Shown: positions 30,721 to 53,060, counted from the first letter of the stretch. The stretch is 64,000 nucleotides of DNA from Pricia antarctica (GCA_011050085.1 DRGL01000069.1:62001-126000); one strand, 5' to 3'. The notes: generated by a model from the letters alone, not told the origin. Numbers and translations are program-made.

Positions 30721-31401
30721 CTAAAAATCGATCTTTTCAACGGGTGAAAAAATCCAATCTTCAACATTGACCATCTTAACCCCAATACGCGCAAAAATAT
30801 AATTCTGGGCCGGTTGGATATTCGGTATTTCTACCGAAACGGAAATATTGGATATATCTGTAACATCTGCATCAGCTTGCGCAATGTTGCGGTCTCCATT
30901 ATTGGAAACAATCTGTGTTTTGTTCAAAAATAGCGTGACCTTTTCGACATCCGTGCCCTGATCACCGGTTAGAATTTTTTCGATTTGGGCAGTGGCCGTA
31001 ATCGCATCAGCATTTTTTGTGAATTGACTATTCCGAACCATGTAGTAAGGAGCCACCTCAACATCTAACGAAGTACCTGAATCGGGTAGACTGATCGGAA
31101 TAGAATCCTGTAATTTTCGAAAAGGTCCTTGACCGTCGAGTAGCGCCAATCTATATTCACCGGCAAAAAGTCTGCTACTAAATGTACCATCTGGTGCTAC
31201 CAGTACACTTATAGGGCCGTCTTTGCCAAATCCCGATTGGTACAGTTCAAAGTTAACCTCGCTTTGGCCAACTAAAATCGGTTCGCCCTGATAAACGATG
31301 CGGCCGGTCAAAAATGCGTTGGGCTCTTCATAATTGTCGACTTCACATGATGAGAGTGCTATGATTACACCCAGCATGCCTAAATAATATTTTACTTTCA
31401 T
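30721..31401 (-). CDS. DUF3823-like lipoprotein associated with SusC/SusD
   Basis: 'MKVKYYLGMLGVIIALSSCEVDNYEEPNAFLTGRIVYQGEPI'; ORF opens at 31428, internal ATG at 31401 gives a lipoprotein signal; directly after SusD. Confidence 0.82.
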   Translation of the reverse strand: MKVKYYLGMLGVIIALSSCEVDNYEEPNAFLTGRIVYQGEPILVGQSEVNFELYQSGFGKDGPISVLVAPDGTFSSRLFAGEYRLALLDGQGPFRKLQDSIPISLPDSGTSLDVEVAPYYMVRNSQFTKNADAITATAQIEKILTGDQGTDVEKVTLFLNKTQIVSNNGDRNIAQADADVTDISNISVSVEIPNIQPAQNYIFARIGVKMVNVEDWIFSPVEKIDF

Positions 31402-31424
31402 GATTATATGCTTATAAGGGTTCA

Positions 31425-33314
31425 TCATTGATTTGGATTTCTTACTAGTAAAGGATTGTTGGTCAAAATATCCTGTGCTATTTCAGAATAGTAATTTCCA
31501 AATCGAAAGCGATCTGCACCGGTAACCCTATCCGGTTTTACAATTTCAAAAATCCATTTACCATCATCGGGGCTACCAGGTTCTATATACTTATAAGGCC
31601 ATACACCCCATGGCTGTGTCTGTCTCTTTGTGGCAGACCCAATATTCTGAGTTACTTGATCCTCGGTAATCTCAACGCCGTCAAAAATAATATGTCCCAA
31701 ACGCCATCTTCGCAAATCGAAGAAATAAAGACCTTCGAAGGCAAGCTCAACATAACGTTCGTGTACGATTCTATCAAAGTCTACTTCGGCGGCCGTTAAT
31801 GGCACGGTGATACCTGCCCTTTCACGGACTTGGTTCAAGTAGCCTGCAGCCAACTCTGGCTGCCCTAGCTCAAAAGCAGCTTCGGCGGCGTTCAAAAGCA
31901 CTTCGGCGAATCGATACCGAATAAACCAGACATCACTTTGTGTTCCTCGTCTACCGGAGCCAATTTTAGGGTCTTGATATTTTCGAATGTAAAATCCAGT
32001 TTGGGCAGTGTGTTCCACACCATTTATCGGGCCGTCAAAGCCGACCACCTGTTGCTGGCCCGTCGTACCGGGAACCTCTTTTTGTTGCCCACGTACTTCA
32101 CCACTGATTATGGTGCCGTCTGCCAGTTGTACCCCTGCCCAAATATCGTTTTCCAGCCCCTTGAACGATGATCCGGGTACCATCACAGTTCCTTGTAATC
32201 GCGCGTCACGCCCATTAAAGAGACTATCCCGAGCTTCGTAAAGAATCTTATCCCCCGATGCATCTTCAACCGGTAGCGGGGCGTAGGTTCCATTCAATAG
32301 TTCAAAAGACTGTACGAACTGAAGGCTGGGATTAATTCTACCTCCTTCTTCTTCCTCAGCGCCAAAGCGGGGCTGATTAGCGCCCGTAAAATAGTGCGCC
32401 TTATTGGCCAATAGAAAATCCTCAACAAAAATCGCTTCCGGATTGGCCGATTTATCGTAGAATATACTCGCAAAATTATCGGATAAATCAGGTTTTTTCT
32501 GATATAACGAGTACTCACCTGCCGTGCCATCTATGATGGATTGCGCGGAAGTCAAGGCCTGTTGATAATACCCCTCTGCCCTAGAAGCTGGAATACCAAC
32601 CTCACCCCCGGGCAGTGATACCAAGGGAGTTGTGGCCCCGTATTTCGCTATGGATGCGGCGTAGATAGCTGCACGTGTTTGAAGTGCTAATACCGCTCCT
32701 CTGGTCGCCCTTGATTTAGTGGTTGGATCGCTTGGAAGAATATCTGCCAATGCATTGGATTCTGTAATGATAAAGTCATATACAGCCGCTTCGGTTTCCC
32801 TAGGTCGCTGCAAGTAAGAGGCATCTCCACTAAAATCGTACTCTAAGGTCTCGAGCACCAAGGGAACGCCACCCATGCGTTTGACCAGTTCAAAGTAATA
32901 GGATACGCGTAAGAACCGGGCTTCTGCCGTAAAGCGGGCCTTGGTTTGATCGTCAAGGGTGGTAGACGCTTCGGCCCGTTCCAAAAATAAATTGATTTCT
33001 CGGATATAGCCATAATCCCAAGTACTTCCTAAATTATTTGGCCATCCATCGTTCTGAAATTCACCATAACGGCCGTTTTCAGACCAAAAAGACACATTGA
33101 AATTAGCCAATGTCGACCAATCTTGAACTGTTCCAAAATCATAGTATCGATCATACAAGTCTCCCAATACAGAAAGAATTGCCGCTTGATCGCTGAACAA
33201 TTGTTCTTCCGTCAACACTTCCGCCGGTGGCCGATCTAAAAATTCTTCATCGGAATCACAGCCTGTGAAGGCTAACGCTGCGGTTAGTAGTAGTATATAT
33301 GTAAATTTTTTCAT
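31425..33314 (-). CDS. SusD/RagB family nutrient-binding lipoprotein
   Basis: 'MKKFTYILLLTAALAFTGCDSDEEFLDRPP', 'DQTKARFTAEARFLRVSYYFELVKRMGGVPLV', 'IRYRFAEVLLNAAEAAFELG', 'RYVELAFEGLYFFDLRRW'. ORF opens at 33392 but would overlap susC; ATG 33314 preferred. Confidence 0.96.
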   Translation of the reverse strand: MKKFTYILLLTAALAFTGCDSDEEFLDRPPAEVLTEEQLFSDQAAILSVLGDLYDRYYDFGTVQDWSTLANFNVSFWSENGRYGEFQNDGWPNNLGSTWDYGYIREINLFLERAEASTTLDDQTKARFTAEARFLRVSYYFELVKRMGGVPLVLETLEYDFSGDASYLQRPRETEAAVYDFIITESNALADILPSDPTTKSRATRGAVLALQTRAAIYAASIAKYGATTPLVSLPGGEVGIPASRAEGYYQQALTSAQSIIDGTAGEYSLYQKKPDLSDNFASIFYDKSANPEAIFVEDFLLANKAHYFTGANQPRFGAEEEEGGRINPSLQFVQSFELLNGTYAPLPVEDASGDKILYEARDSLFNGRDARLQGTVMVPGSSFKGLENDIWAGVQLADGTIISGEVRGQQKEVPGTTGQQQVVGFDGPINGVEHTAQTGFYIRKYQDPKIGSGRRGTQSDVWFIRYRFAEVLLNAAEAAFELGQPELAAGYLNQVRERAGITVPLTAAEVDFDRIVHERYVELAFEGLYFFDLRRWRLGHIIFDGVEITEDQVTQNIGSATKRQTQPWGVWPYKYIEPGSPDDGKWIFEIVKPDRVTGADRFRFGNYYSEIAQDILTNNPLLVRNPNQ

Positions 33315-33327
33315 CGTGACTATTGAT

Positions 33328-36300
33328 TTAAATAGATATGTTAACCCCAACATTGATAAATTTATTTTGTGGATACTGCAAGCCGTTTTCATCGTTAACC
33401 TCTGGATCTACACCGAACTTGCTTAAATTATCCAAGGAAAATAAGTTGTACCCATTGGCATACACTCGAAATTTACTGAAACCTACTTTCTCTAAAAGGG
33501 TTTTCGGAATCGAATATCCGATTTCCAAGGTCCGAGCTCGGAGATAGGTCACATTATGGGTCCAAAAATCTGAGTTTGCATAACTGCTGTGATTCGCATT
33601 GAAACGCAATGCCGGATACTTTCCTGCAGACCATTGGCTATTTAAATCAAATGGGTCTCCTCTTCTCCAGCTGTCCAAGAATATGGAGTTTAAGGCACCT
33701 CCATTTTGAAAAGGCCTACGGGTCTCAAAATTCTGGGCCCAGGAATACCCCGAACCTCCGGAAAAGTCTGCCGTAAGATCTATCCCTTTATAGGCCATAC
33801 GTATATTCAGACCAAAATTAATCATGGGCTGACGCGCAAATTGATAATTAGTAGGCACCAAATCTCCGCCTGTAATAGGGTCATTTTGGTCGGTTGTAAT
33901 TACGCCATCCCCATTTACATCTTCATAGATTAAATCGCCCGGTAAAAGGGTGGTGTTTCCTCTACCATCAATGTCAACAGGGTAGTTATTGATTTCTTCC
34001 TGAGTTTGAAATTGCCCGATCTCTTTAAGGCTAAAACCGACATTGTCCCATCGACCTTCCCTTGAATTATAGTATTCATCCAATGAATTATTGAAAATGG
34101 GTTTGTAGGATGAAATGAATTTCCCTCGGGCATACGAACCATTTGCCGAAACTGTCAGCTCATAATCGTTCCACTTGTTATTGTATGTTACTATGCCTTC
34201 AAAACCTTGTTGCGAATCTGTATTTACATTTTCGTCTGGTAAGGCATAGCCTAGTTCGTTGGGTACCAAAATATCATATTTTCTTCCCCTTAGGTCAGTC
34301 CGTAACCTATAGAACCAGTCATAGGACGCGGATAGCTTTCCATCGAACATCGTAAAATCAAATCCGATATCGGTAATCTTACTTTTAAACCAGGTGATAT
34401 TGTCTACAATCTGCCCTTTGTCCCTAGCGGCAATGATAGGTGTACCATCTAGAATAACCGTACCAACATTATAGTTGTATCCCGGTAAATAATCATATGC
34501 GCCTATACCAATATCATCGTCACCCACGATACCATAGGATGCCCGCAATTTGAATTCATTGACCCAGGCATCATCGCCGGCAATATTGTCATACCAATTT
34601 TCTTCGGTTATTCTCCAACCTACGGAGGCAGAGGGAAAGAATCCGGTGCGTTTATCCGGTGCGAATTTCCATGATTTATCTTGTCGCCCCGATACTTCAA
34701 GGAAGTATTTTTGTTTGTAATTGTAATTGATCTTACCAATATATCCTATACGGGCCAGTTCAGAAGCACTGTCATCATAGGTTACCACGTTTGGGAAGTA
34801 GATTAAGGGCAAAACGTTGGTTTCAGGCACCGCTCGAACAAATTGTCTGTCGTTCATTTCCTCCTGTCTTTCTACGACGAATAGTCCTTCAACGTTATGG
34901 TCTTCCGAAAACGCCTTTTTATATTGTAGAGAACCTTGAAAGTTATTCTTGATTACTTTTTGCGTTTCCCTAGTACGCCACGGATTGGTGCTACCTGCCG
35001 TACGATTGTACTCATCGTTCTCAGCGTCATAAGTAAAGGCATCATATGTATATTCATGGATGTTTTCGACACGATCGGCAATATTATAGGAATATAAACC
35101 TTTTGCGGAAAGACCTTCTAGAAAGCCACCAAACTTGTATTCAGCTGTAAAATTGGTCTGGCCTGACCTCCACTTGTTTAACAGATAGCCACCAAGTTCT
35201 TTATTGTGCCAGGCCCAGTTGGTTTCGTTGTTGCTGATATCATTTACGTAATCGGGATTATCGTTGGCGTAAGGCCGCTCAAAGGGTAAATTTCTAAGGA
35301 TGGCGAACCTGGGAAGAAAATAATCATCGCCACCTGGAATACCCGGATTATCGGTCACCTCGATTCTACCGCTTATTTGGGCACCAACTTTGAGTCGATC
35401 GGAAACATTGATATCAATGTTACTTTGTACGTTTGACCGGCTAAAGCTGTGTTCATCGCCGAAAACCGCTTGCTGATCGAGATGGGTAGCTGATAAATAG
35501 TAGTTGATTTTTTCAGAACCCCCGGTCGTATTGACATTGATATTATATAGCGGCGCATCGCCTTCGATGATAAAATCCTTCCAATTAAAGGACTGGTAGC
35601 CTCTTTCCGTTCCTATGCGATAGCGTTCCAATTCTTCGGGTGTCAATGCAGTCGACCCGAATTCATTGACCTCAGCTTCGGCTTTGGCTACTTGATATAG
35701 GTAGGAGTCATTGACAGGATCGGGAAAACGGGACCAGTTTTGTATGCCGTAATAGGAATCTATGTTTACAACATTAGGTGTATTTCTTCTACCTCGTTTT
35801 GTTGTGACCAATACGACACCGTTGGCCGCCCTTACTCCATAAACAGAAGCAGAGGCATCTTTCAACACGGAAATACTCTCTATGTCATTAGGGGATAGAT
35901 TGTTGAATACACCCGCATCTTGGGTAATACCATCTATTACATAAAGCGGGTTACCCATATTTCGAATCTGCACATTGGCCGTAGCCCCCGGTCTACCGTC
36001 TGCCATTCGAAACGATACTCCGGAAAGTTTACCGGCCAAACCTGAACTCACCGTCGACCCACCGTGCACGTTCTCAAGTTCTTCGGCTCCAACGGTCGAT
36101 ATCGCACCTGTTATTGATTTTTTGTCTTGCGTGGCATATCCGGTCACGACCACCTCATCAAGATTTGCGACGTCTTCCTCCATTTGGGTATCAATGGTTT
36201 CTTGATTGTTTACCGGTATTTCCTTTTTCTTAAAACCGATATAGCTGAATACTAAAGTACCATCAGCTGGAGCTTCTATGCTATAATTACCATCAAAATC

Positions 36301-36465
36301 GGAGGTTACTCCGGTAGTCGTGTTCTTTACGATAATGGATACCCCCGGTAGCGGCTCTCCTTCCAAAGATGTAACGCTACCGGTAATTGGCGTCTGCTCA
36401 TCTTGTCCGTACCCTTGATACATCAACACGCATGCAAAAAGTATCGAAATCAATAGCTTTTTCAT
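33328..36465 (-). CDS. SusC/RagA family TonB-linked outer membrane protein
   Basis: CarboxypepD-like N-domain 'ITGSVTSLEGEPLPGVSIIVKNTTTGVTSDFDGNYSI', plug 'SVLKDASASVYGVRAANGVVLVTTKRG', 1045+ aa; start chosen at ATG 36465 (ORF opens 36489). Confidence 0.96.
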   Translation of the reverse strand: MKKLLISILFACVLMYQGYGQDEQTPITGSVTSLEGEPLPGVSIIVKNTTTGVTSDFDGNYSIEAPADGTLVFSYIGFKKKEIPVNNQETIDTQMEEDVANLDEVVVTGYATQDKKSITGAISTVGAEELENVHGGSTVSSGLAGKLSGVSFRMADGRPGATANVQIRNMGNPLYVIDGITQDAGVFNNLSPNDIESISVLKDASASVYGVRAANGVVLVTTKRGRRNTPNVVNIDSYYGIQNWSRFPDPVNDSYLYQVAKAEAEVNEFGSTALTPEELERYRIGTERGYQSFNWKDFIIEGDAPLYNINVNTTGGSEKINYYLSATHLDQQAVFGDEHSFSRSNVQSNIDINVSDRLKVGAQISGRIEVTDNPGIPGGDDYFLPRFAILRNLPFERPYANDNPDYVNDISNNETNWAWHNKELGGYLLNKWRSGQTNFTAEYKFGGFLEGLSAKGLYSYNIADRVENIHEYTYDAFTYDAENDEYNRTAGSTNPWRTRETQKVIKNNFQGSLQYKKAFSEDHNVEGLFVVERQEEMNDRQFVRAVPETNVLPLIYFPNVVTYDDSASELARIGYIGKINYNYKQKYFLEVSGRQDKSWKFAPDKRTGFFPSASVGWRITEENWYDNIAGDDAWVNEFKLRASYGIVGDDDIGIGAYDYLPGYNYNVGTVILDGTPIIAARDKGQIVDNITWFKSKITDIGFDFTMFDGKLSASYDWFYRLRTDLRGRKYDILVPNELGYALPDENVNTDSQQGFEGIVTYNNKWNDYELTVSANGSYARGKFISSYKPIFNNSLDEYYNSREGRWDNVGFSLKEIGQFQTQEEINNYPVDIDGRGNTTLLPGDLIYEDVNGDGVITTDQNDPITGGDLVPTNYQFARQPMINFGLNIRMAYKGIDLTADFSGGSGYSWAQNFETRRPFQNGGALNSIFLDSWRRGDPFDLNSQWSAGKYPALRFNANHSSYANSDFWTHNVTYLRARTLEIGYSIPKTLLEKVGFSKFRVYANGYNLFSLDNLSKFGVDPEVNDENGLQYPQNKFINVGVNISI

Positions 36466-36576
36466 TCGGTTACTGGGTGGTTTTTTCATTGGTCATCATT
36501 TTTATGAAATAGATTAGGTCAGTGAATCAGTGTTCTTTTATGGTAACCTATGCGGAAAAATTTCGAAAGAAATTGC

Positions 36577-37093: not shown

Positions 37094-38422
37094 TTAATTT
37101 CGGGTTTTCAATCGTGCAGCAAAGAACTCACCAATCGCAAAGCCTTCATCCTGCCCATTAACGATGGCGGGCATGTAGTGGATACCCCCATAAAAACGGC
37201 TTATTGCAGCTTCTTCGGCAGCTTCCCTGAACGAATCAAAATGGCGTACGGGAAGCCCGAATTCCGTCTCGGTAGAATCATCGAACGTGAACTTATTTCC
37301 GAAGAGCTCCGTCAATAGCATGGCAGCGGCCGAAGAGATTACGCTATGTCCGCTGGTATATTCGGGGAAAGGAGGGGTTTGCAGAACCGGTAGCCAATCG
37401 GGGTCGATATGTTGATTAATGTAGGTTTCTGGACGAATGACTACACTTCGGTATTTTTCGTCCCAACAACTGATATAGGCATCGGCCAAGGTTACGGCTA
37501 GACGGGCATAGGCTTCGGTAGATTGTAAGGCAGAAGCCTCTGTTTTTTTACAAGCTAGCGCGGTAATATTCATCCAATGCCCATTAGGAGAAATCTTTTT
37601 AGTGGCGAACATGACATGCCCCCGCAAGTTCATCTTAAACGGATTACAGTCCCAAAAGTTGGCGATTTCGTTTTCTTCCGGAGTGTTGTTTTTCACTTTT
37701 TTATATACGGCCATTACATCCCCATAAAACCTACTAGTCGTATCGATTGAGAATGGCGGGGGTGCAACGGGCTTATATTGCTCCGCCGAATCAATCATAA
37801 AAGTGCGCAATTTGTTCCAGTTCGGTTCGATGGCCTTAATATAAGCGGGGGGAGTCGGTTTCCAAGAACCCGCATCAGCCTTGACCCTGTAATCGGGCAT
37901 CGACTGTATCTTTTTGAAATTATCTTCATCGGCCCAAGCGAGGATATGATCCGCCACTTTTTGCCCATAAGCGATGGAGTTCTCATAAACGGAATCAGGT
38001 ATCCCCTTATCCTTGAATTCCTGCAATAGTATAGCCTCAAAGGCATCGATTTTTTCCTCGGAAATAACAAAATGTTTTCCGGAGGTAAGTAGGGCATGAA
38101 CCGCCGCCAGCGTAAAGCTATACTGTTTTTTCCTGTCAATTTTGGGGATGGGATTCAAACCGTGCAGTTGCCGGGATAAACTGATATAGTCGGGATTGTT
38201 TTGAATCATGACCTCATAGGCCGCAACTGAAATATAGGCGTAGGTGCGACTGGTAACGGGTGGAGAATAAATATCGTACACCATCACGTCGGTGACCTGC
38301 TTCATGGCCCGATGAATGTAGTCAGCTTTTTCGGTTTCCAATCTCCAATCCTTTAAAACTGGTTCGTGGGAGGCATAGACGAAACCGCAAGCCATTAACA
38401 TTACTACAAAAATTCGCTTCAT
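37094..38422 (-). CDS. Vanadium-dependent haloperoxidase/PAP2 superfamily protein (exported)
   Basis: Conserved pattern K-YRSVVI-RP, 'EYTSGHSVISSAAAML', 'SRFYGGIHYMPAI'; signal peptide. Confidence 0.9.
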   Translation of the reverse strand: MKRIFVVMLMACGFVYASHEPVLKDWRLETEKADYIHRAMKQVTDVMVYDIYSPPVTSRTYAYISVAAYEVMIQNNPDYISLSRQLHGLNPIPKIDRKKQYSFTLAAVHALLTSGKHFVISEEKIDAFEAILLQEFKDKGIPDSVYENSIAYGQKVADHILAWADEDNFKKIQSMPDYRVKADAGSWKPTPPAYIKAIEPNWNKLRTFMIDSAEQYKPVAPPPFSIDTTSRFYGDVMAVYKKVKNNTPEENEIANFWDCNPFKMNLRGHVMFATKKISPNGHWMNITALACKKTEASALQSTEAYARLAVTLADAYISCWDEKYRSVVIRPETYINQHIDPDWLPVLQTPPFPEYTSGHSVISSAAAMLLTELFGNKFTFDDSTETEFGLPVRHFDSFREAAEEAAISRFYGGIHYMPAIVNGQDEGFAIGEFFAARLKTRN

Positions 38423-41400: not shown

Positions 41401-41979
41401 ATAGCCTTGGGTGCTGAAGCCGTCGTCAGCAAGACCATAGCTCTCTGAGGATTCCGCGAAAATGGGAATACCATTCTTATCCGGCCCTTTGTTGATGTAC
41501 AAGAGGTTGGTACGTAATTTGGGATCGTTTCGGAAGGATGCGGATACGTAGAGGTCAGGCCATCCATCGCCGTTGATATCGACCACCGATACGCCCGTAC
41601 ACCAGCGGCCCTGTCCGTCGACCTGGGCAACCTCGGTAATGTCGTCGAATTGCATATCGCCTCTATTAAGATATAGTTTATTGGAGACCATATTCGCGGC
41701 AAAATAGATATCCATTAATCCATCCTTATTAAAATCACCAATGCCTACCCCTGCTCCATTATAGATATTGGCCTGGTTAAGGATGTTTAAGGTATCGCTT
41801 TCAACAAGTTCGTTGTTGAAAGTAATGCCCGTATCCGAGCTGGACAAAAGCTTAAAAAGGGTTTTGTTTTGCTGTGCGGAAACGGTACCAAATGAAAATG
41901 ATACTACTATCGTCAAAAAGCTTACTAAACTATATTTCAAAATATTCATGTTACCGATTATTGAAAATGGACTGTACAT
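38419..41979 (-). CDS. FG-GAP/VCBS repeat protein with internal ASPIC/UnbV-like domain (1186 aa)
   Basis: Many 'DFNGDGWPDIYVAND / DFDGDGDLDLFVGG' calcium-binding propeller repeats; ASPIC-like 'NRYLKISFMGPKVNPEGIGATLRLLDSEG...HFGLGHTNSIDSLIVAWPDGKKQIL'. 4-nt overlap with the PAP2 gene. Confidence 0.92.
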   Translation of the reverse strand: MYSPFSIIGNMNILKYSLVSFLTIVVSFSFGTVSAQQNKTLFKLLSSSDTGITFNNELVESDTLNILNQANIYNGAGVGIGDFNKDGLMDIYFAANMVSNKLYLNRGDMQFDDITEVAQVDGQGRWCTGVSVVDINGDGWPDLYVSASFRNDPKLRTNLLYINKGPDKNGIPIFAESSESYGLADDGFSTQGYFFDYDKDGDLDLYQVTNEIYDPRTPIRYRTKLNDGSAKNADRLYRNNGDETFTDVSKEAGVTLEGWGHAAAISDFNGDGWPDIYVANDFISNDLLYINNKNGTFTDRLDDYFKHTGWNAMGTDVVDIDNDGHVDVISLEMLPENNLRKKRMLSGNEYYNYINNAQYNYNHQYVRNVMQMNSGPTPDGHPVFNDRGFMMGVYETDWSWCPLAADFDNDGFRDLIITNGLPRDVTDLDYIAYGSGQRAGAQDFTLAMTDSLPVVKLANYAFKNKGGSEFENTTEKWGMNNPSFSNGGAYADFDNDGDLDVVVNNINDTAFVYENTLKDTNRYLKISFMGPKVNPEGIGATLRLLDSEGELYYEHYPIRGYLSTNDTKAHFGLGHTNSIDSLIVAWPDGKKQILTNITDKELTVDYRNAAEISPKVSEATSETIFQNVASDYGIEFIPVETDFSDYNIQSTLPHKLSQYGPGIAVGDIDTNGFEDFYLGGSSDNPGVFFMQDASGKFTADASRLAQKEDVLFEDMGVLLFDADGDNDLDLYLVSGSYEIPAEHAVSNDRFFLNDGKGIFSRADVLPKDLANGSCVRAADFDGDGDLDLFVGGRVVSAAYPAPPKSMLLRNDGGKFIDVTDQFYPELQRIGMVTDALWSDFDADGTPDLILAGEWMPLTFLKNMGTSFTKIESGLEDKIGWWNSLVSGDFDKDGDMDYVAGNLGLNSNYTATSKEPMTIIAKDIDQNGSMDATVFCYMKGDDGERKAYPIASRDDLISQVITMRKKFPSYKSYGLADIEKLWSETDREGALVLKATEMRSSYIENKGDGTFEMKPLPREAQEAPIFGMSADDVNGDGNLDLILVGNDYGMDPYSGRHDAFNGLVIRGDGSGNFIPMPLDESGFFVPGDAKGLAIVHTAKKEDVLIATQNQDSIAVFSRKSVNSDRWIDLKADDFSAVISYKDGSKRKEEFYYGNTYLSQSSRKFAVEKTAKKITIINFKGNRREIDL

Positions 41980-43309: not shown

Positions 43310-44767
43310 TCAGTTGTTATTTTTATCAGTTATCTCAAAGATATAATCGGCTAGGGCATCTACCCGATCTTGGTCGATGACCCCTTCCCAAGCTGGCATC
43401 CCTTTTTTGATAATGCCGCCATTTATAATCTTTACCATACTAGCTTTATCGGACACGTATTTCCATTTTCCGTCGCGCATACTTTGGGCCGTTTTCGTTC
43501 CTTTCAGATCTATACCATGGCAACTGGCGCACAATTGTCCGTAAATCTTTTTCGGGGTATTACTAATACCTTCGGTGGACGTATCGGTCATCGAAGACTC
43601 ATTCACGAACGAATTTAGCGCTATTCCGCTCTCACCCTTGGCCGCTGGCCGCATACGTAATAGCAAATCGGATTTGGGTCCAGGTGTTCCCTCCGGCGGA
43701 TCGTATTGAGAAGTGGATATATAGAGATAGCCTTCGGGCCCAACCGTTATCGCCCTGATACGGCCATAAACCTTGGGCAACAACACCTTTTCCTCAGTTA
43801 CATTTTTGTCATTGACAGCAAGTTCGATAATCTTTTCCCCCCTAAGACAGGCCAAGAGCATTTTACCCTTGAGACTGGAAAACGCATCGGCATTGTAAAA
43901 TACCAGTTTAGAGGGACCGATAGAAGGCGTATATTCCAATAAGGGGGCCAACATGCCCTCCTGAGTATCGGAATGATGAATAATAGGCCATCCGTAATTG
44001 GCCCCTTTATAGATTCTATTGATTTCGTCGCCCCCGGTCGGCCCATGTTCCGAACTGTACAGAAAATCGGTGCCGGCCTGAAAATCCAAACCTTGTGGAT
44101 TTCGATGGCCATACGACCAGATTTCCTTTCTGGCGGTATCGTTTTCCACGAAAGGATTGTCAATTGGAATACTTCCATCGTCATTTACCCGTAGTATTTT
44201 TCCGTTCAGGGATTTCAGGTCCTGCGCCAACATGGGTTGATCTGCGTCTCCGGTGGTAATGTAAAGTTTGCCGTCAGGACCGAATTTCAAGCGGCAACCC
44301 GTATGGTTTTGGTTCGCCTTGATGTCAGAGACGAGAATCAGCTGTTGGATGAGCGTATCCCTCTCTAGCTGATAACGCACCACTTTTAAGAAGGAGTTAT
44401 CCCCTATTCGGTAATTGTGGGCGAGGTAGATTTGTTGGTTGGTACTGAAATTAGGATGTACCGCCATGCCCAACAAGCCCATTTTCTTGAGCGTGTCCAG
44501 CTTCTTGATGACTAGGGCGGGCTTTTCAAGAAGCTTTTCGTCTCTGTAGATTCTTACTTTTCCATCAGTTTCGGTAAAGAGCATTGTGCTATCCGGCAAA
44601 AAGGCAATTTCCCAAGGTAAGGTCAAGCCCGTGGCTAAGGTATCGATTACAAAGGTGTTCGATTTCAAATGTTCCCTGTTTTCTGAGCTGTACCAAGAGC
44701 AGCAAAAAATGATAGCCATGCAGGCCAGAGCCGTTAGAAATAGGTATCCTGTTTTCATACGTTCCAT
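43310..44767 (-). CDS. PQQ-type sugar dehydrogenase (GSDH/sorbosone-like) fused to C-terminal cytochrome c
   Basis: 'LPWEIAFLPDSTMLFTETDGKVRIY', 'NHTGCRLKFGPDGKLYITTGDA', 'IWSYGHRNPQGLDF', 'SEHGPTGGDEINRI'; haem c motif 'CASCHG' followed by 'GMPAW'. Confidence 0.93.
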   Translation of the reverse strand: MERMKTGYLFLTALACMAIIFCCSWYSSENREHLKSNTFVIDTLATGLTLPWEIAFLPDSTMLFTETDGKVRIYRDEKLLEKPALVIKKLDTLKKMGLLGMAVHPNFSTNQQIYLAHNYRIGDNSFLKVVRYQLERDTLIQQLILVSDIKANQNHTGCRLKFGPDGKLYITTGDADQPMLAQDLKSLNGKILRVNDDGSIPIDNPFVENDTARKEIWSYGHRNPQGLDFQAGTDFLYSSEHGPTGGDEINRIYKGANYGWPIIHHSDTQEGMLAPLLEYTPSIGPSKLVFYNADAFSSLKGKMLLACLRGEKIIELAVNDKNVTEEKVLLPKVYGRIRAITVGPEGYLYISTSQYDPPEGTPGPKSDLLLRMRPAAKGESGIALNSFVNESSMTDTSTEGISNTPKKIYGQLCASCHGIDLKGTKTAQSMRDGKWKYVSDKASMVKIINGGIIKKGMPAWEGVIDQDRVDALADYIFEITDKNNN

Positions 44768-44794: not shown

Positions 44795-47008
44795 TTATTC
44801 TTTCGTATCCGTTTCGATCTTCCCCCCGTCATTAAACAGATTGTGCGATACAAAATAACCGTCTTTTTCCTTCCCGTCGACCAAAATCCTTTTCATTTTT
44901 CTTTTCCCGTGAGTATTTTGAATTAGCAATTCCTTCCCTTTTTTCAATTTCCATTTTACGGCATCGAAAATGGGAACGCTTACCAGATATTCGGGATCGG
45001 CAGGGGAAAGCGGATATAGTCCCGATGCGGCGCATACATACCAGGCCGACATTTCACCGGCATCATCCATTCCGGGAAGGGCGATGCCATCATCACCCAT
45101 ACCATAATAGTTTTCTAGCAAATCGTCGATAACCGCTTGTGACTTTTCGGGCTTGTTCACAAAATAATAGGAGAAAGGGGCCTCGTGGTCCGGCTGGTTG
45201 CCCTGACAATATTGCCCCTTGAAACTTGAAATGTTTCTGGCGATGTGTTCGGGATTCCAAGGCAGTGTAAATAGGGAATCCAACTTTTCCTCGAATTTTT
45301 CAGGGCCATACAGATCGACCAATCCGGGCATATCGTGCGGCACATAGAACGAAACCTGCCAAGCATTGGCCTCGCGATACATATATTCGTAGTAGGGATA
45401 TTGCGGATCGAAAGGGGTAATCCAGTCGCCATTTTCCAACCGGCCCCGCATAAAATGGGTCTTTTTGTCGAACACATTTTTGTAGTTCTGCGAGCGTTCC
45501 ATTAAATCTTTATATTTTAATTCATCTTTCATTGCTTTGGCCAATTGTGCCAAGGCATAATCGTCATAGGCGTATTCCAAAGTCTTTGATACGCCTGCAG
45601 CCGCTTTGGTCTCAACATGAGGGTTTTTAATATCCGGATCCGAAATAAATCCTTTCTGTATGTATTCCTTAATGTAAGGTCTAGCGCTACGGCCATCGGG
45701 CATTTCTTTGTACGCATTATTAAGCAAGAGACTATAGGCTTTGTTCACATCGAAGTCCCGTATTCCACGGGCATAGGCTCCGGCAATAAAAGCAGAGCCG
45801 TGGTCGCCATGGAAAAAAGTGGGTACAAAGCCGGTAAGTTCCCCGATATCCATTAGTGATTTGATAACATCTGTAGTAACCTCGGGCTGTAACACTTGGA
45901 GTAGCACCAGTTTATTCCGGTAGGTGTCCCACAGCGAGGGAATGGTGTAATATTTAAAATCTTCCTTGCGAACATTTCCTTTGGTATCCGTAAATTCGCT
46001 ATTGACATCACTGCGCAATGCGGGCCATAAAAAGGAACGGTACAGCGACGAATAAAAAAGTGTTTTCTGTTTTTGGGTGCCTCCGGCTATTTCCACTTTG
46101 GATAAAAAACCGTTCCAAAGTTTGCTTCCGGCCGTATGGACGTCCTCAAAAGATTTTTCGCCGACTTCCTCAACCATATTTTCCTTGGCATTGGCGGCAC
46201 TGACGAAAGACAATCCTATTTTTAGTATAACGGGGCCATCGGTATCCGAAATTCCGATTATGGCGTGGCCCTCCGCTTTCCCCTCATCGACCTTTTCCAT
46301 AGAGGAAATAGGAGTGTTCAGGATGGCAAAAAAGTGGATTTTGTCGCGCCCCATATCCTGATAACCGCTGATACTATTTTCGCCTACCTTTTCGATTTTC
46401 CAACTGCGGACCTCGTTGTTCGCCCTTCCAAGGTCAAAAAGGATTTTTCTATTTGAATTCTTTTCAAAAGTATACTCGTGGATGGCCGCCCTTAAAGTAG
46501 AGGTCAGTCTGGTCTTGACTCCATAGTCCTCCAAAAAAACTTCATAATAGGCCGGTGATGCCTTTTCGTTTTCGTGTGAAAATTTTGATTTAAAAGGTCG
46601 TTTTGCATCGCCTGAAAGTGGCAAAATAGGGATGTTACAAAGGTTCCAATGCCCTTTGTTGGTATGGGTAAAACCAAGTATTTCGGTATCCTCGTACTCG
46701 TAACCGGCACCCGACCCGTATTCGGTAATCGGGCTGACCTGTACCATGGCATTTGGCAACGCGCTACCCGGAAAAGTGAGTCCGGCCCAGACCCGCCAAC
46801 CTTCGGGAGGGGTATAGCCAATTTGAATGGGGTCGGTCAACGGGGCCGTACCGATAAAGGGGTTGACGTACTGCACGGGGTTTTTTGCAAATACCGTTTC
46901 CTTTTGATCGGCTTTGCCCGTATGCTGGCCTTGGCAGGAGAAAACGATTCCTCCGATCATACTAAATGCGATATTTTTAACTACTTTTCTAAATGTAAAC
47001 ATCACCAT
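44795..47008 (-). CDS. GH92 family glycoside hydrolase (alpha-mannosidase type)
   Basis: 'GSALPNAMVQVSPITEYG', 'FFHGDHGSAFIAGAYARG', 'YREANAWQVSFYVPHD', 'ALPGMDDAGEMSAWYVCAASGLYPL' are GH92 core motifs. Confidence 0.93.
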   Translation of the reverse strand: MVMFTFRKVVKNIAFSMIGGIVFSCQGQHTGKADQKETVFAKNPVQYVNPFIGTAPLTDPIQIGYTPPEGWRVWAGLTFPGSALPNAMVQVSPITEYGSGAGYEYEDTEILGFTHTNKGHWNLCNIPILPLSGDAKRPFKSKFSHENEKASPAYYEVFLEDYGVKTRLTSTLRAAIHEYTFEKNSNRKILFDLGRANNEVRSWKIEKVGENSISGYQDMGRDKIHFFAILNTPISSMEKVDEGKAEGHAIIGISDTDGPVILKIGLSFVSAANAKENMVEEVGEKSFEDVHTAGSKLWNGFLSKVEIAGGTQKQKTLFYSSLYRSFLWPALRSDVNSEFTDTKGNVRKEDFKYYTIPSLWDTYRNKLVLLQVLQPEVTTDVIKSLMDIGELTGFVPTFFHGDHGSAFIAGAYARGIRDFDVNKAYSLLLNNAYKEMPDGRSARPYIKEYIQKGFISDPDIKNPHVETKAAAGVSKTLEYAYDDYALAQLAKAMKDELKYKDLMERSQNYKNVFDKKTHFMRGRLENGDWITPFDPQYPYYEYMYREANAWQVSFYVPHDMPGLVDLYGPEKFEEKLDSLFTLPWNPEHIARNISSFKGQYCQGNQPDHEAPFSYYFVNKPEKSQAVIDDLLENYYGMGDDGIALPGMDDAGEMSAWYVCAASGLYPLSPADPEYLVSVPIFDAVKWKLKKGKELLIQNTHGKRKMKRILVDGKEKDGYFVSHNLFNDGGKIETDTKE

Positions 47009-49221
47009 ATTAATTTAACCGCAACACCATCAGGTTCGTTATCGAAACTTACATACACGGTTTTAGAGCTTTCGTCCCAATCCGATGTAACATCGGCTAG
47101 CATTTCTCCTTCTACGTTCTTCACGATGATACTTTTCGGTGCAGCAGGTAGAAGAATACGCATACTGTTGACGGTGTTTACGGGACTTTTACAAACAAAG
47201 GAAAAGCTGTTCTTATCTACCTGTTCATCATGAATCCGTGATGCCGAGGCCAAGACCTGCGGGCGTGCCTTTTCCAGAACCCGATTAATATTATATAGAA
47301 AGGCCTGTTCGCCCGGTTTTACCGATTTTTTCTCGAGTACGGGAAGTGCAGGATCAAAGAGGTCGATTACAGGGCCATTCACTTCATAAGGTTTGTCGCT
47401 GACACTTTCGTCCATAACGGCAATGATATCATAGGGCCCACGTTCGAGATACAGGTTGTTTTTAAAGGTCAGTTCGCCCGCTTTTGCATCGTTCCCATAT
47501 GCATTTTTTAGGATGTCGATATACGAAGTATCCCCTTTTGCGTTCATTACGAAATCCTTTGGATTTTGCGTAATCAAATGCACACTACCTTTCCCGAACT
47601 TGAAGTTCTGTTTCGCCGTGGAAGTTTCGACGCCCATAAGCTCGAATAAATGTTCAGAGGGTGCTTTGTATTTTTCTCCATCGGAATTCCACCATTCCAT
47701 GACCGATTGATAGGGGTCGTCATCTTTGCCTACATACACTAGAACACCGCCTTTTTCGACCCATTCAGCAATGTGTTGATGGATTTCTGGCGCGTCGGGC
47801 TTCATATTGGAATAACTCATGACCAAGACCTTGATATCCTTTAAGGTCGCCTCGAAGGAAAGGTTTTCCATATGAACGGTCTGCACAGGAACGCCCCGTT
47901 TCAGCAAGGGCAAAGTTTGCCCGTAAAAGTTGGAAAAACGAGGGTCTTCAAATCCGTCGTGGGTCGGAAAGCGCTGGAACATTAGGGAATTGCCCATCAG
48001 TACTCCGATTTCGTTACTACCGTTCACCCGATTTTCGGATACCGGCATATTGTTGAGGGCGTTGACCATCACTTGCATCTGGGTCGAATAGAACTTGGGA
48101 ATCAGGATCTTTTTATCGCTATCGGCTACCCGGTACGGCTTGGTGTAAATACGCTCGGGCCAGGGCATCACCTCATAATCCGCTACTCCGGGGTACAATA
48201 ACTGTGCTACAAAGGTTGCCTGATAATTTCGTTTATAGTCTGCCCAATCTTTGGCCCGATCCTCTATAGGGTCGGTTAGAAAGAAAAGCTTCCGTTTGGT
48301 CGGGGCGGTCATCGAAACCATGGAACCATATTCCAAAAAGGCGTTTTCGAAGACACGTTCCTTTTCCTTCCCGTCAAAAAAAACGGCTTCCCTTGAGGTA
48401 CCCGTCCATACTTGGGCGATGTAGCCATCAATACCCGGCAGGGAGGCCAAACTTGCTTCGGGACTCACAATTTGCCATGCCGAGTAATTCACTAACGAGT
48501 GGGTGGGAATATAAATTTTGACATCCATGCCCTTGCTTTTTCCATAGGATTTGGCATAGGATGAAACTTCCTTCAAAGTATTATAGTACAATTGGTACTT
48601 CAGTTTGTTTGACAAGAAGGTATTTTCCGGTGATTCGTGCTGCGGTTTCCATGGGAAGTCGTAGAATTTTTGCCATTCTTCCTTAAACGCGCTGCTGTAT
48701 CCCGCCCGGGACCAGAATTCGGGCTCCTCCAAGTATATCGAGCATACACCGGCATCGATAACGCGTTCGATAATTTCCTTTTTTATGTATTCGATAAAGG
48801 CCGTGCTCGGTACAATGTAAGGTACGTTATGCCCATGCCAAATGGTATCGCCGTCTTGTTCGACCTGCCCCTCGCCCAGATGGTTCTTACCGTCCCATTC
48901 GCCCAAAAAATAATCTTGGTATGAGCCCCAAGCTATACCAGTCATAAAATGGGTATCGTAGCCCCGGTCTTTCCACGATTTTAGGCGTTCTTCAAAGGTC
49001 AATTCCTGCTGCCCGTCGGTAGGGTTCCCGTTAACCCCATAAACAATGGCAATATCGGAGCGCACATCGATTTCGGGCATCCAAGGGCTGCTCGTTTGGA
49101 AAGCGGTTTTTTCTTTTGTAGCATCCGGGACGATTTCTTGGGCCTGTCCAGAAAACCAAAAGGCGTACCACGCCATACAGAGTAAGACGCTACTTTTTCT
49201 ACTACTATCCATCAATATCAA
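47002..49221 (-). CDS. Unassigned 739-aa exported protein; putative glycoside hydrolase with GH42-like architecture (TIM barrel + trimerisation/GATase-like domain)
   Basis: Signal peptide; 'ICSIYLEEPEFWSRAGYSSAFKEEW'-type acidic strand end; GATase-like 'LKDIKVLVMSYSNMKPDAPEIHQHIAEWVEKGGVLVYVG'; C-terminal beta-rich region; 7-nt overlap with GH92. Confidence 0.7.
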   Translation of the reverse strand: MILMDSSRKSSVLLCMAWYAFWFSGQAQEIVPDATKEKTAFQTSSPWMPEIDVRSDIAIVYGVNGNPTDGQQELTFEERLKSWKDRGYDTHFMTGIAWGSYQDYFLGEWDGKNHLGEGQVEQDGDTIWHGHNVPYIVPSTAFIEYIKKEIIERVIDAGVCSIYLEEPEFWSRAGYSSAFKEEWQKFYDFPWKPQHESPENTFLSNKLKYQLYYNTLKEVSSYAKSYGKSKGMDVKIYIPTHSLVNYSAWQIVSPEASLASLPGIDGYIAQVWTGTSREAVFFDGKEKERVFENAFLEYGSMVSMTAPTKRKLFFLTDPIEDRAKDWADYKRNYQATFVAQLLYPGVADYEVMPWPERIYTKPYRVADSDKKILIPKFYSTQMQVMVNALNNMPVSENRVNGSNEIGVLMGNSLMFQRFPTHDGFEDPRFSNFYGQTLPLLKRGVPVQTVHMENLSFEATLKDIKVLVMSYSNMKPDAPEIHQHIAEWVEKGGVLVYVGKDDDPYQSVMEWWNSDGEKYKAPSEHLFELMGVETSTAKQNFKFGKGSVHLITQNPKDFVMNAKGDTSYIDILKNAYGNDAKAGELTFKNNLYLERGPYDIIAVMDESVSDKPYEVNGPVIDLFDPALPVLEKKSVKPGEQAFLYNINRVLEKARPQVLASASRIHDEQVDKNSFSFVCKSPVNTVNSMRILLPAAPKSIIVKNVEGEMLADVTSDWDESSKTVYVSFDNEPDGVAVKLIW

Positions 49222-49421
49222 ATGTCTTATTACTAATTTTTGAAATGAAATGAAAGGAAAGGCGACTACCCATTTCCTTCGTTTTGATTTATCTGTTTAA
49301 GGCAACATTTCCTAAATGTAGTAGTGTGTAGCACCACCCTCAAAAGTCGTCTCTATCGGTTTATTAGGTCCGCCGTTTTTGAACTCCATTTTCCGAAATC
49401 GATTTTGAAATCATCTACGCA

Positions 49422-49514
49422 CTATTTTTTACTCCAGGAATGATACCCCGCGCCGGTCACGATATCGTTCGAAAAGAATGGCAGCCATCTGAACAACGCC
49501 CTACAATGTATCAT
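49422..49514 (-). pseudogene. Possible C-terminal gene remnant (MIHCRALFRWLPFFSNDIVTGAGYHSWSKK*)
   Basis: Short stop-free frame resembling a protein C-terminus in the 550-bp gap between the 739-aa gene and the sulfatase. Confidence 0.25.
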
Positions 49515-49770
49515 ATCATTTTTTCAAGCTCCATACTTTTTAAAAGGATTCCCTTTTTTCGTTTCCTGTCATCAAACTAGGATAAATTAATGGCCGGAAC
49601 TTCCCATATCGTCGGACATACTAAAAACAATGTCGAGGCATCCTGCTTTACTATAGTCTACCATCTCAATTCTTGGCATGACACGACTATTACAAGGGTC
49701 ATACTACCGTTAAGCACCTAATAAGGTTGTTTTTTACTCAGTATAATTTGACGTTTGGATATTCAAAATA

Positions 49771-51213
49771 TCAAAACGTATAGGGTACCACGACTTTCTG
49801 GTGTTTTACCGACAGTTCCTCAGGTCCTGTCTTGAAGTCCCCTTGCTCTTTTCTCCAATTGGCTAATTGCTTTCTAAACTTTGACAAGATTTCCTGGCTT
49901 GGTTCCAGTTGAGCCAAATTTATTTGTTCGGTGGGATCATTTTTAAGATCGTACAGTTCTTCCTTGGGTCGATTATGATATCTATACAATACATTTGCGG
50001 CATGGACATCCCGAAAGGATTTTTCTTGCCAGGAATCCCAATATTCCCGCCCCCCATCATGGTCTTTCGCTTTGTTCATATGGGTGTTGTACCTTATTTC
50101 TGGCGCTAAATTCAAGATATATTTATATTTTGAGCTTCGGACCATCCGCATGGGCGATCGGTTCATGGTACCGTCCCCAGTATGGGAAGCGTATACCAGG
50201 TCGCGATGTGTCTCGGTATTCCCCAATAGTACCTGCAAAAAGCTTTTTCCATCGATACCTGTTGGGGCCTTGTCTCCGGCCATCTCCGAAAAAGTGGGCA
50301 GCAGATCGGTCAATGAGACTAACGCATCGCTCGAGGAGCCTGCTTTTACATGGTCTTTCCACCGCACCAACAATGGGGAACTTAATCCGTAATCATACAG
50401 GTTCCATTTCCCGAAGGCCCACTGCGGTCCTTGATCGGATATGAATACCACAATGGTGTTTTCATCGAGACCATTTTTCTCCAAGCCAGCGAGAAGTTTC
50501 CCCAAATTGGCATCCATTTTCGTAATATCCTCATAATACCGTGCCCGGGAATGTCTGGTGTCTTCGGTGTCAATATGGAACGAAGGCATTGTTACCTCTT
50601 CAGGACTATACGCTGTTTTTTCGGGCCAAACCACATGCGGACTATGGTCGGCCACGACAAGCATAAAGGGGTTTTTTTCTTTTCGCACCCTTAGCCACTG
50701 CTCTACCGGCCCCATATTCAGATCATAATGAAGGCCCGGCTTGTCTTCAAAGCCAGGTTCGGGAACATTGGAATTCATAATGCGTTCGAAAGCAAAATTT
50801 TCTTCAGGCCCAACATGGTATTTTCCAGCAATGGCAACGGTATAGTCCAAGGGTTCAAAGTAATCTACCAAAGACTTTGTTTCTTTTTTTACCCCGGTAT
50901 GATTACCGTGCGCTCCATTTTTAAAAGGCATGAGACCCGTAAAAATGCTACTTCGTGATGGAGAACAGGTCGGCGAAGATGCAAACGCATTGGTGAACTG
51001 CATCGATTCAGCTGCCAATCGGTCGATATTGGGCGTACGTACTTCCGTATTGCCATAAGCTCCAAGATCTTCGGTCGCCAAGTCGTCCGCTATGAAAAGT
51101 ACGATGTTCGGCTTTACATTCTCGGAAGCTTTTTGGGCATGCAAGTATTGGCCGCTCGATATTAGGGCCATGAACATCAAAAAATTCAGTAAAGGGTTCA
51201 GTGAATTCACCAT
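49771..51213 (-). CDS. Sulfatase, S1 type (formylglycine C-x-P-S-R)
   Basis: 'NIVLFIADDLATEDLGAYGN', 'SSPTCSPSRSSIFTG', 'IAGKYHVGP', 'VFISDQGPQWAFGKWNLYD'. Confidence 0.95.
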   Translation of the reverse strand: MVNSLNPLLNFLMFMALISSGQYLHAQKASENVKPNIVLFIADDLATEDLGAYGNTEVRTPNIDRLAAESMQFTNAFASSPTCSPSRSSIFTGLMPFKNGAHGNHTGVKKETKSLVDYFEPLDYTVAIAGKYHVGPEENFAFERIMNSNVPEPGFEDKPGLHYDLNMGPVEQWLRVRKEKNPFMLVVADHSPHVVWPEKTAYSPEEVTMPSFHIDTEDTRHSRARYYEDITKMDANLGKLLAGLEKNGLDENTIVVFISDQGPQWAFGKWNLYDYGLSSPLLVRWKDHVKAGSSSDALVSLTDLLPTFSEMAGDKAPTGIDGKSFLQVLLGNTETHRDLVYASHTGDGTMNRSPMRMVRSSKYKYILNLAPEIRYNTHMNKAKDHDGGREYWDSWQEKSFRDVHAANVLYRYHNRPKEELYDLKNDPTEQINLAQLEPSQEILSKFRKQLANWRKEQGDFKTGPEELSVKHQKVVVPYTF

Positions 51214-51218
51214 TGCTT

Positions 51219-53060
51219 TTATTGGTTGCCCAGTTCCTCGATAATGGACCGGTTCGCCGCTTTCACTTCGGAAATGTTCATCTTATCTACCTTTCGGTCA
51301 TAGGTCATAAATCCGTTGACCTCGCCCTCGACGTCGGTAGTCTGGGTATAGATGGCACCGGAAAATCCCGACTTGACCATTTTTTTCAGTTCCTCGGCAT
51401 ACTTTACGTATTGTTCGGTGGTTTCCTTGGAATTCTTGAACTTGACGTAGCCCCAGTTTTCGTCGGGGCGCCAAAGGTGACCTTCCAAAGCCAGACCGAT
51501 TCCTCCATATTCGCCCAAAACGTTTGTGCGCTCGGCATCGTATAGATACATGGCGGGCCCTGGATAATTGTGCAGGTCGACGATATCACCGGTGCGGTAA
51601 AAATTGCCTCCACTGGCCGCGTTCACCAAACGGCTGGGATCATAGGCTTTCGTCCATTCCGAAATTTCCTCAGTCTTGAACTGACCCCAGGCTTCATTGA
51701 AGGGTACCCAAGACACGATGCTGGGGTGGGAAAACAGATAATCCATAATACCTTTCCATTCTTTTCTATAGATGGCTTCCGACCGAGCGCTCCTTTTAAG
51801 TTCCGAACCCTCAAAGTAATTATGGTTCTGCCATTGTGGACCGTTCGATTGGTCACCGCTGGGCATATCTTGCCAGACCAGAATCCCCATACGATCGCAG
51901 TGGGTGTACCAGCGTGCGGGCTCGACCTTGACGTGCTTTCGGATAAGGTTGAAGCCCAGTTCCTTGGTCTTCTCGATATCATATTTAAGGGCTTCATCAG
52001 TGGGCGCCGTATACAGGCCGTCGGGCCACCAGCCTTGGTCTAAGGGGCCGAACTGAAAGTAGTCCTTATTATTTAGCTGCATTCGAATGATACCATAATC
52101 GTCTTTCTTCATCGAAATTTTTCGCATGCCGAAATAACTTTTCACCTGGTCTTGCAGGGTATATTCCCCTGACTGCGGATTTCTTTCCATCAGTTTTACC
52201 TGCATATCGTATAGAAATGGAGTTTCAGGCGACCAAAGTTTGGCCTTCTCGATGGGTAATACTAAGGTCTCGCCCACGGCGGATTTTGCCGTTGCTATTA
52301 CTGATTCGCCGTCAGAGACGCTCACTTCGACAATATCCCCATAGGTACCACCAATGATTTCAGCGTCAATCTTTACCGTACCGCTGTCGATATCGGGCTC
52401 ACTTCGTAGGTTCGCTATACTTTTTTGAGCGACCGGCTCCAGCCATACGGTCTGCCAGATTCCCGTAACGGGTGTGTACCAGATACCTTTAGGCTCCTTA
52501 ACTTGTTTTCCCCTGGGCTGCGGACCTTCGTCGGTAGGGTCCCAGACCCTGACAATCAGTTCTTGTTTCCCTTGTGTCAAGAATGGTGTTATGTTAAAAT
52601 TGAAAGGGGTGTATCCACCTTCGTGAGAACCTACCCTCACGTCATTGATCCAAATATCGGTCTTCCAATCCACCGCCCCGAAGTGTAGTAATATATCCTT
52701 GGTTTTCCAATCGGAAGGTACTTCGAAAGCGGTATGATACCAAAGTTCATTATCTGCCCCTACATCTTTCATAACACCCGATAGGCTAGATTCTACGGCA
52801 AAGGGTACTAAAATTTCACCGTCGAACTTTTCCGGATTCGATGCCCCCTTTGGCCGTATGGCATATTCCCACAGTCCATTGAGGTTTTTCCAGTCGGGCC
52901 GCTCCATACTAGGGCGCGGGTATTCGGGCAGTACGTTTTTTGGGTCTATTTTTTGGGACCACTGGGTCTTTATTTTAGTGCCGGCAGGCTTCCATTGAGC
53001 CATCATCGGTATTGAAATTAGAAGGATAATCAGGGCAAGCAATAATTTTTTTGGATTCAT
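51219..53060 (-). CDS. GH2 family glycoside hydrolase
   Basis: 'YPRPSMERPDWKNLNGLWEYAI', 'FGAVDWKTDIWINDVRVGSHEGGYTPFNFNIT', 'FNLIRKHVKVEPARWYTHCDRMGILVWQDMPSG', 'VPFNEAWGQ' catalytic NE motif. Confidence 0.95.
   Translation of the reverse strand: MNPKKLLLALIILLISIPMMAQWKPAGTKIKTQWSQKIDPKNVLPEYPRPSMERPDWKNLNGLWEYAIRPKGASNPEKFDGEILVPFAVESSLSGVMKDVGADNELWYHTAFEVPSDWKTKDILLHFGAVDWKTDIWINDVRVGSHEGGYTPFNFNITPFLTQGKQELIVRVWDPTDEGPQPRGKQVKEPKGIWYTPVTGIWQTVWLEPVAQKSIANLRSEPDIDSGTVKIDAEIIGGTYGDIVEVSVSDGESVIATAKSAVGETLVLPIEKAKLWSPETPFLYDMQVKLMERNPQSGEYTLQDQVKSYFGMRKISMKKDDYGIIRMQLNNKDYFQFGPLDQGWWPDGLYTAPTDEALKYDIEKTKELGFNLIRKHVKVEPARWYTHCDRMGILVWQDMPSGDQSNGPQWQNHNYFEGSELKRSARSEAIYRKEWKGIMDYLFSHPSIVSWVPFNEAWGQFKTEEISEWTKAYDPSRLVNAASGGNFYRTGDIVDLHNYPGPAMYLYDAERTNVLGEYGGIGLALEGHLWRPDENWGYVKFKNSKETTEQYVKYAEELKKMVKSGFSGAIYTQTTDVEGEVNGFMTYDRKVDKMNISEVKAANRSIIEELGNQ

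What the first reader, a model, noticed from the sequence alone, without database searches (positions are those of the whole stretch)
47002..49221. Candidate new glycoside hydrolase family coupled to GH92
The sequence shows a secreted 739-aa protein whose stop overlaps the GH92 start (7 nt). I cannot assign it to a named CAZy family. It appears to combine a TIM-barrel-like N-terminal half (with 'IYLEEPEFWSRAGYSS', an acidic cluster at a predicted strand end), a GATase-like segment as in GH42 trimerisation domains, and a beta-rich tail. Translational coupling to a GH92 and neighbouring sulfatase/GH2 genes suggest it acts on the same glycan. The glycosidase assignment is inference.
Basis: partly seen in the sequence, partly recalled or inferred. 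Interest (0 to 1): 0.72.

Follow-up and report, generated by a model that had tools for sequence, protein, structure and literature searches.

The report
Unnamed GH42-like sugar-enzyme family beside GH92
This gene belongs to an unnamed but widespread bacterial protein family whose predicted shape matches known sugar-cutting enzymes although its sequence does not, and which repeatedly sits in gene clusters for eating mannose-rich sugars, so it is probably a new family of glycan-degrading enzymes whose exact target is still unknown.

Summary
On the minus strand, 47002-49221 encodes a 739-aa (TTG) or 736-aa (ATG, more likely) secreted protein whose stop overlaps the GH92 start by 7 nt.

No Pfam-A, NCBIfam or PDB-sequence family matches it, and PGAP calls a relative "hypothetical". 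It is not an orphan: a scan of GTDB species genomes gave 495 relatives, those listed being Bacteroidota. A 39%-identical relative lies on a Paenibacillus megaplasmid, beside a sugar ABC transporter.

An AlphaFold2 model from 81 homologues (pLDDT 88, pTM 0.90) matches GH42 beta-galactosidases over its whole length (Foldseek E 8e-14): barrel, GATase-like trimerisation domain, beta tail. In 85 of 85 members, acidic residues are invariant at the ends of barrel strand 4 (EEPE) and strand 7 (D of TDPIED). Invariant residues cluster at the barrel mouth (p=2e-5).

The conserved neighbourhood is SusC-SusD-DUF3823-this-GH92(-GH76). GH92 is directly downstream in 29 of 81 loci, requiring at least 14 changes on the tree.

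Activity, substrate and mechanism are untested. CAZy/dbCAN could not be checked, so "new family" means "not found in the resources searched".

The parts
47002..49221 (-). Gene of the finding: candidate GH42-like glycosidase, 739 aa from TTG (736 aa from the ATG at 49212)
   Evidence: ORF; start region; conserved homologues
49138..49212 (-). Probable type I signal peptide (ORF residues 4-28), export to periplasm
   Evidence: sequence by eye; homologues have similar hydrophobic N-termini; the Paenibacillus relative lacks it
48013..49137 (-). Domain A: (beta/alpha)8-type barrel (ORF residues 29-403, approximate boundary)
   Evidence: AlphaFold2 secondary structure; Foldseek; 25% invariant positions
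48712..48732 (-). LEEPEFW at the end of strand 4; E165, E166, E168 invariant in 85/85; E166 (model E138) proposed general acid/base
48259..48276 (-). TDPIED at the end of strand 7; D317 (model D289) proposed second catalytic carboxylate; D317 and D321 invariant in 85/85, E320 not (G in L004)
48172..48174 (-). E350 (model E322) in EVMPWP, strand 8, invariant; probable active-site residue
47263..48012 (-). Domain B: GATase-like, GH42 trimerisation-type domain (ORF residues 404-653, approximate)
   Evidence: hhalign to GH42 middle domain E 2.8e-5, probability 74%
47005..47262 (-). Domain C: C-terminal beta domain (ORF residues 654-739, approximate)
44795..47008 (-). GH92 alpha-mannosidase-type gene overlapping the end of this gene
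   Evidence: PF07971 E 2.5e-131; overlap
49771..51213 (-). Sulfatase in the same orientation (not a conserved neighbour in the family)
51219..53060 (-). GH2 enzyme in the same orientation (not a conserved neighbour)
33328..36489 (-). SusC-type TonB-dependent transporter of the same putative locus
31425..33392 (-). SusD
   Evidence: PF07980 E 1.4e-43
30721..31428 (-). DUF3823 lipoprotein, the family that lies directly upstream of this gene in other genomes
   Evidence: PF12866/PF18003
53366..57364 (+). Hybrid two-component regulator diverging from the cluster

Best explanation
The gene encodes a periplasmic member of a so-far unnamed protein family that is built and probably works like GH42/GH164 exo-glycosidases. 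It has a (beta/alpha)8 barrel whose mouth carries an acid/base glutamate at the end of strand 4 (E166 of the ORF, in LEEPEFW) and a second carboxylate at the end of strand 7 (most likely D317, in TDPIED). A GATase-like domain probably makes a trimer that closes the active site, and a beta domain ends the chain. It would take oligosaccharides imported by SusC/SusD and remove a terminal, most likely beta-linked sugar, alternating with the GH92 alpha-mannosidase made from the overlapping gene. Shown here: family, predicted fold, conservation, synteny. Inferred: catalysis, choice of residues, trimer, linkage and substrate.
For: Deep-alignment AlphaFold2 model with pLDDT 87.9 and pTM 0.90. The best 21 PDB fold matches are all GH42 beta-galactosidases or the GH35 Ignavibacterium glucosyltransferase, over the whole chain, E down to 7.8e-14. 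The middle domain matches GH42 at profile level, E 2.8e-5. E165/E166/E168, D317/D321 and E350 are invariant in 85 of 85 members including a 39%-identical Paenibacillus relative. Invariant residues concentrate at the strand C-termini: 30/64 against 61/303 elsewhere in the barrel, p=2e-5. Spacing E166 to D317 is 151 residues; GH42 here 163-177, Bs164 137 (E160/E297, PMC7105311). Conserved PUL SusC-SusD-DUF3823-gene-GH92(-GH76); DUF3823 directly upstream in 37 loci; GH92 directly downstream in 29/81 although the window genome has only two GH92 genes; at least 14 changes on the tree. The Paenibacillus relative directly follows a carbohydrate ABC transporter.
Against: No sequence similarity of the barrel to GH42 or to any solved structure. 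TM-scores are only about 0.5, and no coordinates were available to measure the distance between carboxylates. The usual Asn-Glu before the strand-4 acid/base is Glu-Glu here, and the strand-7 residue is Asp, not Glu, so a retaining GH-A mechanism is not assured. hhalign suggests that the alpha2-beta3 stretch of GH42 is missing. No biochemical data.
Confidence: 0.72

Rival explanations
1. It is a glycoside phosphorylase or transglycosylase of GH42-like architecture (as in GH112 or the I. album beta-1,2-glucosyltransferase) rather than a hydrolase.
For: The I. album transferase is among the best fold matches and GH112 lacto-N-biose phosphorylase is at rank 34; the strand motifs differ from canonical GH42.
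Against: The Bacteroidota forms appear exported, where phosphorolysis is less plausible; invariant carboxylates on both strands 4 and 7 suit hydrolysis.
Confidence: 0.12
2. It is a very divergent GH42 or GH164 member (beta-galactosidase or beta-mannosidase) that falls inside an existing CAZy family.
For: Same three-domain order and full-length fold match; Bs164 shows the same architecture for a beta-mannosidase (PMC7105311).
Against: PF02449 does not hit any member tested; no GH164 or GH42 chain among PDB sequence matches; GH-A signature residues differ.
Confidence: 0.1
3. It is a non-catalytic glycan-binding or structural protein of the PUL that has kept the GH42 fold.
For: Activity has never been shown; catalytic-motif letters differ from GH42.
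Against: The barrel is the most conserved domain (25% invariant against 12% and 9%) and invariant positions cluster at the barrel mouth, with acidic residues kept to 39% identity and across two phyla.
Confidence: 0.06

Closest known systems
GH42 beta-galactosidases (e.g. PDB 4uzs, 3tts, 5dfa)
   Same: Order barrel, GATase-like trimerisation domain, beta domain; full-length Foldseek match E 7.8e-14, TM 0.5-0.56; middle domain profile match E 2.8e-5; carboxylates on strands 4 and 7
   Different: No barrel sequence similarity; no PF02449 hit; Glu-Glu-Pro-Glu in place of Asn-Glu; Asp in place of the nucleophile Glu; alpha2-beta3 segment apparently missing
GH164 beta-mannosidase Bs164 of Bacteroides salyersiae (PMC7105311)
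   Same: Three domains of similar size (barrel, trimerisation domain, beta domain), Bacteroidota origin, mannose context
   Different: Not among the 50 best fold matches; no sequence match to its PDB entries; nucleophile is Glu there
I. album beta-1,2-glucosyltransferase (GH35, PMC8861115; PDB 7vl0)
   Same: Full-length fold match E 1.4e-12
   Different: 12% identity; acts on beta-1,2-glucans and belongs to GH35
GH195 endo-alpha-1,3-mannanase of diatom sulfated mannan PULs (PMC13063451)
   Same: New family next to GH92 and sulfatases in marine Flavobacteriia, similar ecological setting
   Different: The paper describes it as distantly related to GH99 and fused to or beside an S1_51 sulfatase; no sequence was available for comparison here

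Membership tests
GH42 | Match to the Pfam GH42 catalytic model PF02449 | tested here: not met
   No PF02449 hit at E<=1 for any of 14 diverse members; the window genome has no PF02449 match at all
GH42 | Three-domain architecture with GATase-like trimerisation domain | tested here: met
   Fold match over the whole chain; middle-domain profile match E 2.8e-5
GH42 | Asn-Glu acid/base motif at strand 4 and Glu nucleophile at strand 7 | tested here: not met
   LEEPEFW and TDPIED instead, strand-4 Glu and strand-7 Asp invariant
GH42 | beta-galactosidase activity | not testable with these tools
   needs the protein
GH164 | Sequence similarity to Bs164 | tested here: not met
   No Bs164 chain among PDB sequence matches up to E 10
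GH164 | Glu acid/base on strand 4 and Glu nucleophile on strand 7 | tested here: inconclusive
   Strand 4 has Glu, strand 7 has Asp at the expected place; no coordinates to superpose
Clan GH-A type glycosidase (as a kind, not a family) | (beta/alpha)8 barrel with conserved carboxylates at the C-terminal ends of strands 4 and 7 | tested here: met
   Secondary structure of the model with 85/85 conservation; strand numbering assumes that the short N-terminal strand completes the eight
Any existing CAZy family | Match to CAZy/dbCAN models | not testable with these tools
   dbCAN is not available; literature searches gave no matching family

The most novel reading that the evidence does not exclude
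A new glycoside hydrolase family, widespread in Bacteroidota PULs and present in Paenibacillus, which has the GH42 three-domain frame but altered catalytic carboxylates (EEPE on strand 4, Asp on strand 7), and which acts on a linkage in alpha-mannose-containing glycans for which no enzyme family is yet named.
Probability: 0.5. Interest if true: 0.7.

Novelty: new variant of a known kind. Interest (0 to 1): 0.58.

Why it matters
If right, several hundred Bacteroidota genomes carry an unannotated enzyme that is a core part of a conserved mannoside-utilisation locus. Naming it would fill a gap in PUL annotation, reveal a step in degradation of alpha-mannose glycans (fungal, plant or algal), and give a GH42-fold family with unusual catalytic residues in which mechanism can be tested. 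The conserved locus makes the substrate question directly testable by growth and knockout in cultured hosts such as Mucilaginibacter, Pedobacter or Chitinophaga.

Tried and rejected
Single-sequence AlphaFold2 (pLDDT 35) gave nothing usable. phmmer/hmmsearch against PDB chains gave only chance hits. Two NCBIfam hits (VirB4, RNA 2'-phosphotransferase) and Pfam DUF4350 are below cut-offs; DUF4350 touches only the GATase-like domain, which fits that fold. Profile search of about 400 Bacteroidota genomes found no intermediate relatives between the family (E about 0) and noise (E 0.009). Weak hits L005-L015 were not treated as homologues. Phages and viral contigs: no relatives. GH195 was considered because of the GH92/sulfatase setting; it is described as GH99-related (PMC13063451), so not adopted. 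No Rfam RNA in 29000-54000, and promoter/terminator patterns no more frequent than in shuffles.

Full report
OBSERVATION. On the minus strand, 47002-49221 is an open frame of 739 codons beginning with TTG. An in-frame ATG three codons later (49212) is the likelier start. The N-terminus reads as a signal peptide (by eye). The stop codon overlaps the start of a GH92 gene by 7 nt, or by 1 nt if GH92 uses its second ATG. GH92, sulfatase and GH2 neighbours are confirmed by Pfam. The frame is conserved as protein in many genomes, so it is a gene.

FAMILY. No Pfam-A model reaches its cut-off, and the same holds for NCBIfam; no PDB chain matches by sequence, for the window protein, for diverse members or for profiles. 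A profile scan of GTDB species genomes found 495 relatives, of which the best 80 (63-74% identical) were fetched. Those are Bacteroidota except one labelled Williamsia, whose contig carries SusC/SusD and is probably misbinned. In an even draw of about 400 Bacteroidota genomes four including the window's hold it, and nothing lies between these and noise. None of the window's 149 other closest sampled relatives has it. In the tree the window protein groups with Flavobacteriaceae members (SH-aLRT 99). A relative with 39% identity over 99% of the length lies on a Paenibacillus cellulositrophicus megaplasmid, annotated 'hypothetical protein', apparently without signal peptide, directly after a carbohydrate ABC transporter. 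Phage records hold none.

FOLD. AlphaFold2 with 81 sequences gave pLDDT 87.9 and pTM 0.90. The secondary structure reads as a beta/alpha barrel (model residues 1-375; ORF number = model number + 28), an alpha/beta domain (376-625) and a beta domain (626-711). Foldseek against the PDB put GH42 beta-galactosidases first (4uzs, E 7.8e-14), with the GH35-classed I. album beta-1,2-glucosyltransferase among them, over the whole chain with TM about 0.5; lower come GH167, a GH42 exo-carrageenase, GH112, GH66, GH31 and GH98. The TM value means a shared architecture with shifted domains or loops, not a close relative. Profile-profile comparison with 25 GH42-model proteins from the same phylum found the middle domain (E 2.8e-5, probability 74%) but not the barrel; with five GH42 sequences and no Paenibacillus member it was E 0.007.

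ACTIVE SITE (inference). Counting eight strands, LEEPEFW ends strand 4 and TDPIED ends strand 7. E137, E138, E140, D289, D293 and E322 (model numbers) are the same in all 85 members including Paenibacillus; E292 is Gly in one member. Invariant residues are concentrated in the strand C-terminal zones (30 of 64) against 61 of 303 in the rest of the barrel (p=2e-5) and 10 of 58 on the opposite side (p=5e-4). The barrel has 25% invariant positions, the middle domain 12%, the tail 9%. A permissive whole-chain profile alignment puts EEP of the family on NEP of GH42. The distance E138-D289 is 151 residues; in the nine canonical GH42 proteins measured it is 163-177, in Bs164 137 (PMC7105311). I therefore propose E138 (ORF E166) as acid/base and D289 (ORF D317) as second carboxylate.

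CONTEXT. In 84 loci the common neighbours are SusC (59), SusD (42), GH92 (41), DUF3823 lipoprotein (38), FecR (20), and in some GH76 (8), ROK kinase (6), a GtaA/DUF5127 protein (6). DUF3823 lies directly upstream in 37 loci. GH92 is directly downstream in 29 of 81 loci, always on the same strand, while the window's genome has two GH92 genes in 5.5 Mb; this state changes at least 14 times on the tree, so the link has been made or lost repeatedly. The window holds the same cast in scattered order: SusC, SusD and DUF3823 at 36489-30721, the gene and GH92 at 49221-44795, and a hybrid two-component regulator at 53366-57364. GH76 and GH125 neighbours point to alpha-mannan or mannose-rich glycans.

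FUNCTION. Best reading: a periplasmic, probably trimeric exo-glycosidase working on oligosaccharides imported by SusCD in concert with GH92. Because GH42/GH164-type enzymes cleave beta-linked sugars, a beta-linked cap or core sugar on an alpha-mannoside is the likeliest target, but this is inference from the fold group. The Asp on strand 7 and the missing Asn on strand 4 leave a different mechanism open.

KNOWN OR NEW. It works like GH42/GH164 in architecture, but fails the sequence and motif tests of membership. Literature searches found no description. CAZy and dbCAN could not be consulted, so a recent, unpublished or subscription-only family assignment cannot be excluded.

Noticed in passing
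window 37094-41979: A PAP2/vanadium-haloperoxidase-like gene and an FG-GAP/UnbV_ASPIC repeat protein gene overlap by 4 nt inside the locus, between GH43 and SusC.
   Followed up: partly
window 26925-29309: UPF0261 (Tm-1-like) and PEP_hydrolase-like genes lie next to a GH43 gene and the DUF3823-SusD-SusC set; a pair of unclear function.
   Followed up: partly
window 43310-44767: Glucose/sorbosone dehydrogenase domain fused to a cytochrome c domain directly downstream of GH92; a GSDH-cytochrome c protein (cluster c10) also lies near 7 other family loci.
   Followed up: partly
window 49222-49770: 549-nt gap without a gene between sulfatase and this gene; no Rfam match and no promoter signal above chance.
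   Followed up: partly
window 20749-22827: 692-aa secreted-looking protein without any Pfam match at E 1e-5.
   Followed up: no
L033: Contig of a MAG labelled Williamsia sp. carries a typical Bacteroidota SusC-SusD-DUF3823-GH92 locus; probably a misbinned or mislabelled assembly.
   Followed up: no
L016, L023, L038, L089, L090: GMC-oxidoreductase-like genes (by eye) or a 3-keto-disaccharide hydrolase gene (PF06439) beside the family gene in some loci, hinting at a link with 3-keto-glycoside chemistry.
   Followed up: no
L108: About 611-aa Bacteroidota protein with a sub-threshold GH42 match and motif IQIACGIYGEWHYWGF; possibly another unassigned GH42-like group.
   Followed up: no
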